The notes under the pieces were generated by a model. It was not told the DNA's origin. It saw only the letters and a list, made by a program, of their open reading frames with translations, and ran no database searches. The position numbers were made by a program, and so were the translations under genes. Below are positions 6-2,479 of a stretch of DNA of 6,897 nucleotides, in pieces. Within the stretch, counting starts at the first letter, position 1; the number at the start of each line of letters is the position of its first letter. Origin of the DNA: Treponema sp. (GTDB taxonomy: Bacteria > Spirochaetota > Spirochaetia > Treponematales > Breznakiellaceae); NCBI GenBank assembly GCA_031271075.1, contig JAISWN010000216.1, positions 1 to 6,897 of the forward strand, given 5' to 3'.

Positions 6-986
6 ATGCCTATTAAAACATCCATACGCAAAGAAACTATCCCCTTGTTTAATGAGGAGACAGCCAATTTTCCTCTTGAAACATCAGATGTTTATAATCT
101 GGTTATTGACCGGAGAAGAGTTGGAGTTTCCGTGCCGGCATATAGCAGAAGAAACGGCTTGTTGTTTACCGGAAACAGCCTCCATTGGTTGAAATTGATA
201 GAAACGGATTCTGTTGATTTAATATTTGCCGACCCTCCTTACAATATTCAGAAAGCTTCATGGGATAGATTTGATTCGCAGGAACAATACATAAGCTGGT
301 CAATGGATTGGATACGTGAGGCCGCTCGTATCTTGAAACCGGAGGGGACGCTTTATATTTGCGGATTTAGTGAAATTTTAGCGGATCTGAAACACCCGGC
401 AATGAGATTTTTTGTGGACTGTAAATGGTTGATTTGGTATTACCGCAACAAAGCCAATTTAGGAAAAGACTGGGGACGGTCGCATGAAAGTATTTTGCAT
501 CTGCGTAAATCAAAACATTTTACCATGAATACAGACAATATCCGGGTTCCTTACAGCGAACATACCTTAAAATACCCGGAGCATCCGCAGGCGGAAACCA
601 GTCAATACGGGAATGGCACGAAAAACACGCAATTATGGAAACCGCATCCCATGGGCGCAAAACCAAAAGACGTTATTGAGATACCGACAACCTGTAATGG
701 CATGGGAGAAAAAACGGAACATCCAACACAAAAGCCGGAAGAATTATTGCGGAAGATACTGCTTGCTTCAAGTAACCAGGGCGATATTGTGTTAGACCCT
801 TTTTCCGGTTCAGGCACAACGCTTGTAGTTGCCGAACAACTTGGGCGCAAATGGGTTGGCTGTGAAATGAACGAAGAATATAATACATGGGCAATCAATA
901 GAATTGATACCGTTACCCGTCGCACGGTTTCCGAATGGATAGAATATGACAAATTAAACGCAAAGCGAAGGGAATCGATACGATGA
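6..986 (+). CDS. DNA methyltransferase of a type II restriction-modification system (beta-class amino-methyltransferase)
   Basis: Probably transfers a methyl group from S-adenosylmethionine to an exocyclic amino group (N6-adenine or N4-cytosine), protecting the host from the nuclease encoded just downstream. Seen in the 326-residue protein: a GNSLHWLK block (56-63), the catalytic DPPY motif (76-79), a WGRSHESIL block (156-164), HPTQKP (239-244), and the AdoMet-binding DPFSGSGTT motif (264-272). The catalytic motif precedes the AdoMet motif, which is the beta-class order. The segment between (about 140-235) would hold the target-recognition region. DPPY favours adenine but does not exclude cytosine. 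The length is normal for a stand-alone methylase. The ATG at 6 is only five bases from the window edge, so a start further upstream cannot be excluded. The stop overlaps an ATG (ATGA, 983-986), so the downstream gene is probably translationally coupled. The AT-rich composition, unlike the genes at the right, suggests acquisition by transfer. Confidence 0.93.
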   Translation: MPIKTSIRKETIPLFNEETANFPLETSDVYNLVIDRRRVGVSVPAYSRRNGLLFTGNSLHWLKLIETDSVDLIFADPPYNIQKASWDRFDSQEQYISWSMDWIREAARILKPEGTLYICGFSEILADLKHPAMRFFVDCKWLIWYYRNKANLGKDWGRSHESILHLRKSKHFTMNTDNIRVPYSEHTLKYPEHPQAETSQYGNGTKNTQLWKPHPMGAKPKDVIEIPTTCNGMGEKTEHPTQKPEELLRKILLASSNQGDIVLDPFSGSGTTLVVAEQLGRKWVGCEMNEEYNTWAINRIDTVTRRTVSEWIEYDKLNAKRRESIR

Positions 987-1039
987 AACTATCGGAATTG
1001 CTGGAATATGCCAGAGACAAAACCAATTTCACCACTTAA
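983..1039 (+). CDS. 18-codon ORF overlapping the methylase stop; leader peptide or displaced nuclease N-terminus
   Basis: The frame reads MKLSELLEYARDKTNFTT and then TAA at 1037-1039. Its ATG overlaps the methylase stop as ATGA. It has the best ribosome-binding site in the junction (GAAGGGA, 967-973, nine bases before the ATG). The peptide looks like the amphipathic start of a real protein rather than noise. A single-base +1 slip at 1035-1038 would join it to the nuclease frame and give a protein of about 247 residues. Two readings remain: it is the true nuclease start broken by an indel or rescued by recoding, or it is a coupling minigene that brings ribosomes to ATG 1050. The sequence alone does not decide. 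Confidence 0.45.
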   Translation: MKLSELLEYARDKTNFTT

Positions 1040-1727
1040 CAACAATTTAATGATTTCAGCAAATGAATTTTCAAATTCGAAAGATACTTTTGTTTACGCG
1101 ATGAAGCACATAAAAGACATAAAGCATAAACTTGAGATACGGCAGACAATAAACAAGTTTATTTATACGTGCCAGCAATCAATAGGCGCAACGCTTGATG
1201 CTTTGCCCGCCGGAGAAAGCAGCACGGCGCGGAAAATAAATGGCGACTTGTTTGAACGCTATGTTCGGCTTATTTTAATGGAATTAGGATTATCTGTTAG
1301 AGACGGTATCGTTCCAGTTCCTGTAATTGTAAATGGAGAAACATTATTTCAAATGGTTTATCAGCATGACCTTATTATAGAAAATGGAAAAACAATAAAA
1401 GTGATTGGTTCTGTAAAAACCTCCAGCAAGGACAGGCTGGACAAAATATTTATAGACAAATTTTTATATAACCGCCTGACAAATAGTGAAACTCCGCATT
1501 TTGCCGTATTCTTACATGATGTTCAAAGAAAGGGAAAAGAGCCGAATTTCGGCGTTAACACCACGTTTTTAACCGGACACTTTAAGGGATATACCGTAAA
1601 GTTAAATCCGTTAGACGGTGTATATTACTGTGATTTACGTCCGGTAATGTACTCAGACTCAATATTAAAAGAGCATATAAAAACATTAGATTGTTTGTTA
1701 ATTGATGATATATGGAAATTTCTATAA
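1008..1727 (+). CDS. Putative type II restriction endonuclease, PD-(D/E)XK fold (start uncertain)
   Basis: Probable nuclease partner of the methylase immediately upstream. In the 239-residue reading from ATG 1008, residues 79-87 (GDLFERYVR) give an acidic helix with E83. D121 in HDLII is followed 16 residues later by K137 in IGSVKTSSKDR. This E...D...xVK spacing fits a PD-(D/E)XK catalytic site, and the SVKTSSKDR block resembles those of other type II enzymes. Downstream blocks LDKIFIDKFLYNR and NPLDGVYYCDLRP are well formed but I cannot tie them to a family. A ScaI-type enzyme is one unverified possibility. There is no signal peptide or membrane segment. The start is unclear: ATG 1008 and ATG 1050 (same frame) both lack a good ribosome-binding site. 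The ATG with a good site (983) is in another frame and stops after 18 codons. The gene may therefore carry a frameshift near its N-terminus. It is AT-rich like the methylase. The nuclease role rests on context plus the D/K motif. Confidence 0.72.
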   Translation: MPETKPISPLNNNLMISANEFSNSKDTFVYAMKHIKDIKHKLEIRQTINKFIYTCQQSIGATLDALPAGESSTARKINGDLFERYVRLILMELGLSVRDGIVPVPVIVNGETLFQMVYQHDLIIENGKTIKVIGSVKTSSKDRLDKIFIDKFLYNRLTNSETPHFAVFLHDVQRKGKEPNFGVNTTFLTGHFKGYTVKLNPLDGVYYCDLRPVMYSDSILKEHIKTLDCLLIDDIWKFL

Positions 1728-1763
1728 GAAAACATTTGGTAAAATGCCCGCACTTCGTATAAC

Positions 1764-1782
1764 GAGGCTGTCGAATAAGTCC
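1764..1782. mobile_element. Possible solitary insertion-sequence terminal repeat
   Basis: GAGGCTGTCGAATAAGTCC resembles the ends of many transposase-carrying elements, which often begin GAGGCTGTC followed by an AAAAGTC-like run. It lies 36 bases after the nuclease stop, where the AT-rich segment ends. No inverted partner (GGACTTATTCGACAGCCTC or a close variant) and no transposase are visible in the window. At most this is one surviving end of an element. Confidence 0.25.
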
Positions 1783-1783
1783 G

Positions 1784-1812
1784 TTTCAAGGTGTTAAGAC
1801 ACTATATATAGT
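1784..1812 (+). promoter_or_regulatory. Candidate sigma-70 promoter overlapping the first NrdR box
   Basis: A weak -35 (TTTCAA, 1784-1789) is followed after 17 bases by a good -10 (TATAGT, 1807-1812). The -10 falls inside the first NrdR palindrome, so bound NrdR would block RNA polymerase. Transcription would start near 1819 and run rightward into the non-coding leader, since leftward is only the 3' end of the nuclease gene. Confidence 0.45.
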
Positions 1813-1814
1813 GT
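1799..1814. promoter_or_regulatory. NrdR box 1
   Basis: ACACTATATATAGTGT is a perfect 16-bp palindrome and agrees fully with the established NrdR-box consensus (acaCwAtATaTwGtgt). NrdR is the ATP/dATP-sensing repressor of ribonucleotide reductase genes. A second, imperfect copy lies 32 bp downstream, which is the characteristic paired arrangement. Confidence 0.85.
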
Positions 1815-1830
1815 GTAGTTGGCACGAAAT

Positions 1831-1846
1831 ACACCATATATAGTGG
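1831..1846. promoter_or_regulatory. NrdR box 2
   Basis: ACACCATATATAGTGG differs from box 1 at two positions. Exactly 16 bp separate the boxes (1815-1830), so their centres are 32 bp apart, close to three helical turns. Both sites would face the same side of the helix, as is typical for NrdR-regulated promoters. The pairing greatly strengthens the call for each box. Confidence 0.82.
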
Positions 1847-1847
1847 T

Positions 1848-1885
1848 TGTTGGGCCGTTTGAAGACTTTTCCGGCAGTCCCAACA
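1848..1885 (+). other. Leader stem-loop
   Basis: TGTTGGG (1848-1854) pairs perfectly with CCCAACA (1879-1885) across a 24-base interior. It would be the first structure in a transcript from the NrdR-box promoter. It may belong to the basal stem region of the leader RNA that follows. Its role is unknown. Confidence 0.4.
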
Positions 1886-1950
1886 GGTCTGTTAGCGCTT
1901 TTTTGTCCTGCAGGCCTTACTGGGCCGATAGGCGGCTCGGGCTACAGCCG

Positions 1951-2130
1951 GAACGGTATGGGTGGTTTTTTGCTTTCATCCGTGCCGCGGGGGAGCTTCA
2001 GGGCGGTTAAAAAAGGATTAAACCGCCGGGTGCAACCACTTCGGGAGAACAACATGCCCCGCTGCTTGCGGCGGGCGTTGATTTCGGGCCCCCGCCAAAC
2101 GGTTAAAAGTAAATGCCGATGCCCTGCCTG
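1951..2130 (+). promoter_or_regulatory. Structured leader RNA with cobalamin-riboswitch-like blocks (degenerate or variant)
   Basis: Several blocks follow the order of a cobalamin riboswitch. A hairpin CGGTATGGGTG / CATCCGTGCCG (1954-1964 / 1977-1987) has 11 pairs, three of them G-U. TTAAAAAAGGATTAAA (2007-2022) resembles the UUAAAAGGGAA joining segment. CCGGGTGCAACC (2026-2037), closed by CGGG (2042-2045), resembles the GGUGaAAuCC element. TGCCCCGCTGCTTGCGG (2055-2071) resembles the B12-box CCCGCcaCUGU...CGG. GCCGATGCCCTGCCTGAAA (2115-2133) resembles the 3' GCCAGaaGACCUGCC element. None matches perfectly, so it may be divergent, decayed or a look-alike. Placement behind NrdR boxes fits the known pairing of NrdR and B12 control on ribonucleotide reductase genes. 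A 25-codon frame at 2054, preceded by GGGAG, lies inside it. I regard that as accidental because it overlaps the structure and resembles no known protein. Confidence 0.4.
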
Positions 2131-2188: not shown

Positions 2189-2232
2189 TTTACAAAATTC
2201 TTTATTGGTGGTATGTTAGTTATATCTAATAT
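2189..2232 (+). promoter_or_regulatory. Candidate promoter(s) for the downstream non-coding transcript
   Basis: Two overlapping sigma-70-like arrangements occur. TTTACA (2189-2194) is 17 bases from TATGTT (2212-2217). TTGGTG (2205-2210) is 16 bases from TAATAT (2227-2232). Either would start transcription between about 2224 and 2240, just before a run of strong RNA hairpins ending at 2462. AT-rich DNA gives such matches easily, so this is suggestive only. Confidence 0.35.
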
Positions 2233-2239
2233 AGTTAGC

Positions 2240-2462
2240 CAAAACTTACTATATCGGATTTTGAGTGTGCTGGGGGAAGGATCATCCGCCTCTCTCCGAT
2301 TCTGCCCCCGGCTAAGCTCAAAAGGTAGGTGCCGGGTCCGCCCGGTTTTCTGGTGTCTGTCCGCAAAGCTGGTTCCTTTCCGGACAGACCACTCTCCATT
2401 CGTTGACCCGGTTTTCCGGCAGGCTTGCGCGTCGCGCAGGCCCGCGGAAGGCCGGGTTTTTT
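2240..2462 (+). ncRNA. Putative structured non-coding RNA of unknown family
   Basis: Between the candidate promoter and a strong intrinsic terminator lie three hairpins and no credible reading frame. Hairpin 1 (2259-2323) is long: TTTTGAG/CTCAAAA, then GCTGGGGG/CCCCCGGC, then AGGATC/GATTCT, 21 pairs in all with small internal loops. Hairpin 2 (2332-2345) is CCGGG-TCCG-CCCGG. Hairpin 3 (2355-2389) is GTCTGTCCG/CGGACAGAC around a 17-base loop. The terminator follows. I do not recognise 6S RNA, SRP RNA, tmRNA or RNase P signatures. The paired arms and terminal U-run argue for a real transcript of about 220 nt. It could also be the distal part of a longer RNA started at the NrdR-box promoter. It converges on the kinase gene. 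Confidence 0.45.
2407..2462 (+). terminator. Intrinsic (rho-independent) terminator
   Basis: A long hairpin has an outer arm CCCGG/CCGGG (2407-2411 / 2452-2456), TTCC/GGAA in the middle, and an inner stem GGCTTGCGC/GCGCAGGCC (2422-2430 / 2434-2442, one G-U) on a GTC loop. TTTTTT follows directly (2457-2462). The U-tract is on the plus strand only, so the hairpin ends a rightward transcript. There is no plus-strand protein gene for it to serve after 1727. Confidence 0.82.
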
Positions 2463-2479
2463 ATTCGTGCCGGGGGGTC

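What the first reader, a model, noticed from the sequence alone, without database searches (positions are those of the whole stretch)
1799..1846. Textbook NrdR-box pair with no ribonucleotide reductase gene behind it
A perfect 16-bp NrdR palindrome and a near copy, 32 bp centre to centre, with a -10 inside box 1, make a convincing NrdR operator. These normally sit directly before nrd genes. Here nothing to the right encodes a reductase, and leftward lies only the 3' end of a restriction enzyme. Either the reductase gene was lost or displaced next to an acquired restriction-modification island, or NrdR controls a non-coding RNA here, which would be new to my knowledge.
Basis: partly seen in the sequence, partly recalled or inferred. 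Interest (0 to 1): 0.72.

Follow-up and report, generated by a model that had tools for sequence, protein, structure and literature searches.

The report
Jumping DNA carrying NrdR switches
The two predicted binding sites for NrdR, the repressor of the genes that make DNA building blocks, lie inside a 118-base repeat that likely moved as a jumping element and occurs in many copies in this and related spirochaete genomes, so it would bring NrdR to places where no such gene exists.

Summary
The two 16-bp boxes are real, but the locus never needed a reductase gene. They lie in a 118-bp element (1764-1881) with inverted ends and AAC on both sides; full or partial copies lie on twelve other contigs of this MAG. 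A search by the ends alone found 34 such elements in 21 of 195 related genomes; 26 carry a box pair. In 16 non-redundant 118-bp elements the boxes are nearly as conserved as the ends (0.80 and 0.77 against 0.86 and 0.88), while the DNA between and beside them is not (0.45-0.50). The boxes show no base-pair covariation, which favours a protein site over a hairpin. The spacer is 15-17 bp in 31 of 31 elements. A second element family with other ends (19 copies in one genome) has spacers of 25-26 bp in the 10 copies examined. NrdR binds spacers of 14-17 and 24-27 bp in published assays. The cell's own NrdR-type pair lies before nrdR-nrdD on another contig. Most copies sit in integron attC-like sites, here behind a restriction-modification pair. 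A lost reductase or an NrdR-controlled RNA is not supported. That NrdR binds, and that this serves the element, are inferred.

The parts
6..986 (+). N6/N4 DNA methyltransferase gene (its start may lie beyond the contig end); likely the front of a gene cassette
   Evidence: PF01555, E 3.4e-55
1008..1727 (+). 239-aa ORF, shortened relative of a 295-aa family, likely a type II restriction enzyme
   Evidence: PDB match of a relative, E 5.6e-6; no Pfam or NCBIfam family
1757..1763 (+). left core (R''-like, GTATAAC) of an attC-like site, ending in the left AAC repeat 1761-1763
1764..1881 (+). 118-bp element with inverted ends (MITE-like)
1764..1781 (+). left inverted end GAGGCTGTCGAATAAGTC
1799..1814 (.). 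NrdR-type box 1
1815..1830 (.). 16-bp spacer, not conserved between elements
1831..1846 (.). NrdR-type box 2
1864..1881 (-). right inverted end (in this copy changed at two positions of its last ten)
1882..1960 (+). rest of the attC-like site: AAC repeat and AGG 1882-1887, L''-like TCTGTTAGCGC 1888-1898, L'-like GCTACAG 1941-1947, decayed R'-like ACGGTATG 1953-1960
   Evidence: boundaries read by eye

Best explanation
The box pair is part of a 118-bp repeat with inverted ends that occurs in many copies in this and related genomes, mostly in integron attC-like sites, and it likely binds the cell's NrdR as a mobile operator that would serve the element itself rather than a ribonucleotide reductase gene. 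Shown from sequence: the element, its inverted ends, the AAC on both sides, its copies, its preferred site, the constraint on the boxes, and a nrdR gene in the same genome. Inferred: it moves as a MITE through an IS1182-type transposase acting in trans. Inferred: the NrdR tetramer, loaded with dATP and ATP, binds both boxes on one face of the helix. Inferred and least certain: bound NrdR bends or clamps the short element and so ties its movement or persistence to the dNTP supply; in many copies it could also draw NrdR away from the real nrd operator.
For: Copies with inverted ends in G000. 34 elements in 21 of 195 genomes found by ends alone, 26 with the pair. Boxes about as conserved as ends while spacer and arms are not, no covariation in the boxes. 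Spacer 16 bp in 29, 15 in 1 and 17 in 1 of 31 elements; second family with spacer 25-26 in 10 of 10 sites examined of 19 in G104. NrdR binds spacers of 14-17 and 24-27 bp (PMC12051234, passages). Boxes score like or above relatives' nrdJ boxes. nrdR present. Target TAAC...AACAGG in 22 of 31 box elements. Same ends on IS1182-like elements in two relatives.
Against: No binding or transposition data. 8 of 34 elements with the same ends lack the boxes, so the boxes are not needed for movement; two of those 8 also measure 118 bp, so constant length is not proof of box spacing. The two full-size relatives have no box pair. Two elements (G028, G083) have weak boxes; in the second family box 1 has 3 mismatches and the single G100 copy shows no pair at an allowed spacing. 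The conservation of the ends is partly set by the search, which asked for 10 exact bases at each end. The nrdJ boxes were picked with a similar consensus. The element does fold better than shuffles as single-stranded DNA (z -2.57, 2 of 200).
Confidence: 0.55

Rival explanations
1. The palindromes are sites for another protein (a transposase accessory site, or a different regulator with a similar box), not NrdR.
For: Similar pairs also stand before genes that are not reductases in relatives: 15 of 30 loci shown I could not assign to the element or to nrdJ. The genome has more boxes in repeats (18 of 22) than before nrd genes (2 of 22).
Against: The two spacings found, 15-17 and 25-26 bp, are those of NrdR, as is the 26-bp spacer before nrdR-nrdD here; nrdJ operators of relatives use the same box type. 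The two full-size elements with a transposase gene lack the pair.
Confidence: 0.25
2. The boxes are a structural palindrome or hairpin kept for transposition or as filler, with no protein bound.
For: Each box is a palindrome and the two can pair with each other; the element folds as single-stranded DNA with z -2.57. Box-less elements of the same ends carry other inverted cores.
Against: Pairing in box 1, in box 2 and between boxes does not exceed shuffles (p 0.90, 0.30, 0.44), and the arms pair no better than shuffled ones. One spacer measure did exceed shuffles (Watson-Crick only, p 0.03; with G-T 0.36).
Confidence: 0.15
3. One reading: a stranded nrd promoter, or an NrdR-controlled non-coding RNA to the right.
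For: The boxes have the NrdR form; a strongly folding stretch lies at 2217-2465 (z -7.03) behind a promoter-like hit at 2189-2217.
Against: Multi-copy element with inverted ends; nrd genes elsewhere in the genome. The folding stretch is about 370 bp from the boxes with its own promoter-like hit, and only patches of it recur in the loci held. No Rfam family near the boxes.
Confidence: 0.03

Closest known systems
NrdR operators of nrd operons (pairs of 16-bp NrdR boxes)
   Same: Box sequence and spacer lengths
   Different: On a mobile repeat, behind a gene, no reductase gene downstream
Correia elements of Neisseria (MITEs with an IHF site)
   Same: Short element with inverted ends that carries a site for a host DNA-binding protein (PMC10969869, passages)
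   Different: Here the site is the operator pair of a nucleotide-sensing repressor; other ends, other host
IS1182-family insertion sequences
   Same: Two relatives have 1.4-1.7 kb elements with the same ends, one with an IS1182-like transposase
   Different: The 118-bp element has no transposase; the full-size ones have no box pair
attC sites of chromosomal integrons
   Same: R''/L''/L'/R' layout at C336:6749-6929, with two further incomplete or decayed sites within 2 kb
   Different: No integron integrase over cut-off in this genome; the window's right core is decayed

Membership tests
NrdR operator | Two 16-bp palindromic NrdR boxes | tested here: met
NrdR operator | Spacer of 14-17 or 24-27 bp | tested here: met
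   16 bp; ranges from PMC12051234, passages
NrdR operator | nrdR gene in the genome | tested here: met
   C208, TIGR00244 182.2 bits, cut-off 124.65
NrdR operator | Stands before a ribonucleotide reductase gene | tested here: not met
NrdR operator | Bound by NrdR | not testable with these tools
   needs protein
MITE | Short, no transposase gene, terminal inverted repeats | tested here: met
   118 bp with 18-bp inverted ends
MITE | Multiple copies at unrelated places | tested here: met
MITE | Short direct repeat of the target on both sides | tested here: met
   AAC on both sides of the window copy and of most copies
MITE | Autonomous element with the same ends | tested here: met
   in relatives G089 (broken) and G116; none seen in G000
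MITE | Observed transposition | not testable with these tools
   needs experiment
Integron attC site | Complementary R''/R' and L''/L' cores | tested here: inconclusive
   met at C336:6749-6929; decayed in the window
Integron attC site | Integron integrase in the genome | tested here: not met
   TIGR02249 over cut-off in 5 of 195 genomes, G000 not among them; G000 is 63% complete
IS1182 family (the G116 transposase) | Transposase over the curated model cut-off | tested here: not met
   NF033551 165.9 bits, cut-off 270, on a 380-aa protein; PF05598 over its cut-off

The most novel reading that the evidence does not exclude
NrdR is a host factor for transposable elements: two unrelated MITE families carry NrdR operators and use the repressor as a dNTP sensor that opens or closes their own movement, while their copies act as a sponge that loosens repression of the cell's ribonucleotide reductases.
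Probability: 0.22. Interest if true: 0.88.

Novelty: new variant of a known kind. Interest (0 to 1): 0.6.

Why it matters
NrdR is described as a repressor specific to reductase genes. If bound, this would be mobile DNA that reads the cell's dNTP state, and a way to spread operators to new genes. It also warns against calling regulons from box matches alone. One protein and one 118-bp fragment are enough to test the first step.

Tried and rejected
Non-coding RNA under NrdR: no Rfam family over its gathering score among the 8 matches listed, no promoter-like hit inside the element; the folding stretch 2217-2465 has only patchy matches in the loci held. Displaced reductase: nrdD with nrdR on C208, nrdJ on C184. 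Hairpin as the reason for the constraint: no covariation in the boxes. The whole repeat as one attC site: the 118-bp core has its own ends and AAC repeats and is absent from the empty sites, so I read it as an insertion into an attC-like site. Boxes inherited from the insertion sequence: no box pair in the two full-size relatives.

Print: NrdR with transposable elements (17 papers listed at two of three terms), attC with IS1182 (3 papers), miniature inverted-repeat with attC and chromosomal integron (2 papers), MITE with Treponema and termite, NrdR with miniature inverted, NrdR with spirochete or Treponema (10 of 2,623 listed). I saw listings and abstract starts there, and nothing on point; the library holds open-licence papers only. 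Passages were read in PMC3607928, PMC12051234, PMC10969869 and PMC12176259; no whole paper was read.

Rows dropped: one search tried 38 sources, 6 gave no element and one (G085i) gave a false one, leaving 31. One search kept those found and exactly 118 bp long (22 of 26), thinned to 16 at under 90% identity; left out were G067c, G084b, G006b, C14, C85 and four of 117 or 119 bp. One search tried 31 nrdJ loci and scored 24; best pair at 31-33 bp in 18, 41-42 in 2, other in 4, with 2 to 14 mismatches of 32. One search used 17 of these 24 (dropped L211, L216, L219, L223, L224, L228, L234). The nrdJ of G000 was not scored (its motif differs) and was read by eye. One search translated a frame that was of no use.

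Full report
Observation. The window holds ACACTATATATAGTGT at 1799-1814 and ACACCATATATAGTGG at 1831-1846, 32 bp start to start. The window is the whole of contig C14 of an unnamed MAG, G000: 2.53 Mb, 394 contigs, 63% complete. A genome search for the palindrome with up to 3 mismatches gave 22 forward sites against 3 for the reversed pattern.

The boxes are on a repeat. DNA around them matches other contigs of G000 at 88-96%. Reading these places out shows one unit: an 18-bp end GAGGCTGTCGAATAAGTC, a 17-bp arm, box 1, 16 bp, box 2, an arm, and the inverted end. The window copy is 1764-1881, 118 bp. Copies with both boxes are on C353, C85, C229, C34 and C126; C37 is interrupted between the boxes; C106, C1, C16 and C108 are partial with one box; C336 holds a right end and C168 an 84-bp version without the pair. 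By my assignment 18 of the 22 box sites lie in this repeat, 2 in front of nrdR-nrdD on C208, and 2 elsewhere (C166, C249).

Where the cell's own operator is. C208 encodes nrdR (177 aa; PF22811, PF03477, TIGR00244 over cut-off) followed by nrdD (719 aa; PF13597), with boxes at 2806-2821 and 2848-2863 in front, a 26-bp spacer. nrdJ is on C184, cut by the contig end, with no site within 3 mismatches of the palindrome. So reductase genes exist here and are not behind the window's boxes.

Relatives. The pair at fixed spacing, up to 3 mismatches, was found in 30 of 195 family genomes, control 0. Of the 30 loci, one per genome, I read 12 as this element (one with divergent ends, some cut by contig ends), 2 as nrdJ operators, 1 as lying between a different inverted end pair (G150), and 15 as unassigned. 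To avoid choosing by the boxes I then searched for the ends alone: 34 elements in 21 of 195 genomes, the reversed control matching in 1 genome; 26 carry the box pair and 8 do not (my reading of the sequences).

Constraint. Of the 26, 22 are exactly 118 bp, and 16 remain at under 90% identity. Mean pairwise identity is 0.86 and 0.88 in the ends, 0.80 and 0.77 in the boxes, 0.45 in the spacer, 0.46 and 0.50 in the arms. The ends were demanded by the search over 10 bases each; the boxes were not. Pairing within box 1, within box 2 and between boxes does not exceed shuffles (p 0.90, 0.30, 0.44); spacer pairing exceeded them on one of two measures (p 0.03 and 0.36). This fits a protein-read sequence better than a hairpin, though the element does fold better than shuffles (z -2.57). 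In 31 extracted elements the spacer is 16 bp in 29, 15 in 1, 17 in 1; three of the 31 came from the fixed-spacing search. A search allowing any start-to-start distance of 20-50 bp with exact boxes gave 14 sites in 6 of 195 genomes, at 32 (11), 31 (1) and 42 (2), control 0 (strands merged by me).

A second family. In G104 the 42-bp pair lies between other ends (CTGTGTCAAAA). A search for these ends alone found 19 in G104, 1 in G100, and none in the other 193 genomes. I examined 10 of the 19: 8 have the pair with a 26-bp spacer, 2 with 25 bp; box 1 is weak (3 mismatches), and the copies are near-identical, so this is one family and not 19 witnesses. The G100 copy shows no pair at an allowed spacing. 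NrdR proteins from three phyla bind pairs with spacers of 14-17 and 24-27 bp and about a hundred times less otherwise (PMC12051234, passages). Both families fall in these ranges.

Box quality. With a matrix from 34 nrdJ boxes of 17 relatives, 34 boxes of 17 elements have median score 21.2, the nrdJ boxes (each scored with its own locus left out) 17.4, and the 99.9th percentile of 101,424 background positions is 4.9. The nrdJ boxes had been picked with a similar consensus, so this shows likeness, not function.

Target and transposase. 22 of 31 box elements have TAAC on the left and AACAGG on the right, in one orientation, and so have 7 of the 8 box-less ones. Empty sites read GCATAACAGG.TTGTTTATGC and the like. 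The site at C336:6749-6929 has GCATAAC/GTTATGC and GCTATATG/CATATAGC, the layout of integron attC sites, and two further incomplete or decayed ones lie on C336 within 2 kb. In the window the site starts at about 1756, behind the restriction-modification genes, and its far core is decayed. No integron integrase passes the cut-off in G000, and an earlier study found no integron trace in two termite treponemes (PMC3607928, passages). I therefore say attC-like. Two relatives have full-size elements with the same ends: 1698 bp in G089, broken, and 1383 bp in G116 with an IS1182-like transposase, under the curated cut-off. Neither has a box pair.

Function. The element sits behind a gene, has no promoter-like hit, and the same boxes are kept at many unrelated places. 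This points to selection on the element, not on one neighbouring gene. My best mechanism is that NrdR bound to both boxes shapes or clamps the short element and ties its movement or survival to the dNTP state; titration of NrdR by the copies is a possible side effect. Binding and effect are inferred. The nearest precedent is the IHF site in Correia elements (PMC10969869, passages).

Rating. Carriage of NrdR operators by mobile elements did not turn up in the print searched. It is a new variant of known kinds (MITE, NrdR operator) with a bold reading that is easy to test.

Noticed in passing
window 1986-2085 and 2463-2545; G000:C37 about 266-412: A second dispersed repeat, widespread in relatives (9 matches in G033, 5 in G036). 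In C37 it is inserted between the two boxes of the element with GGCACGAA on both sides.
   Followed up: partly
window 983-1060: The likely endonuclease gene seems to lack about 48 codons and to change frame compared with its 295-aa relatives (read by eye), so it is probably inactive beside an intact-looking methyltransferase frame.
   Followed up: partly
window 2189-2465: Promoter-like hit followed by a strongly folding stretch (z -7.03, none of 200 shuffles as good) that ends in a terminator-like hairpin; only patches of it match other loci.
   Followed up: partly
L172 (G186:C11) 2230-2277; L117 (G170:C8) 88-135; L168 (G164:C1) 2262-2319: NrdR-type box pairs before ORFs that look like grpE-dnaK (named by eye), before a CsgG/LpoB-like gene, and at 42 bp beside a tRNA-like sequence (by eye): perhaps a wider NrdR regulon or a sister regulator.
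   Followed up: no
L135, L138, L140 (109 bp), L165 (150 bp): Elements with the same ends but another inverted core of the type AATTCYTTGTA...TACAAGGAATT, possibly the site of a different regulator.
   Followed up: no
L178, 1753-1798 (CAMNGG010000299.1, uncultured Treponema): A near-perfect box pair at 32 bp next to a flavodoxin-like ORF (named by eye), without clear inverted ends.
   Followed up: no
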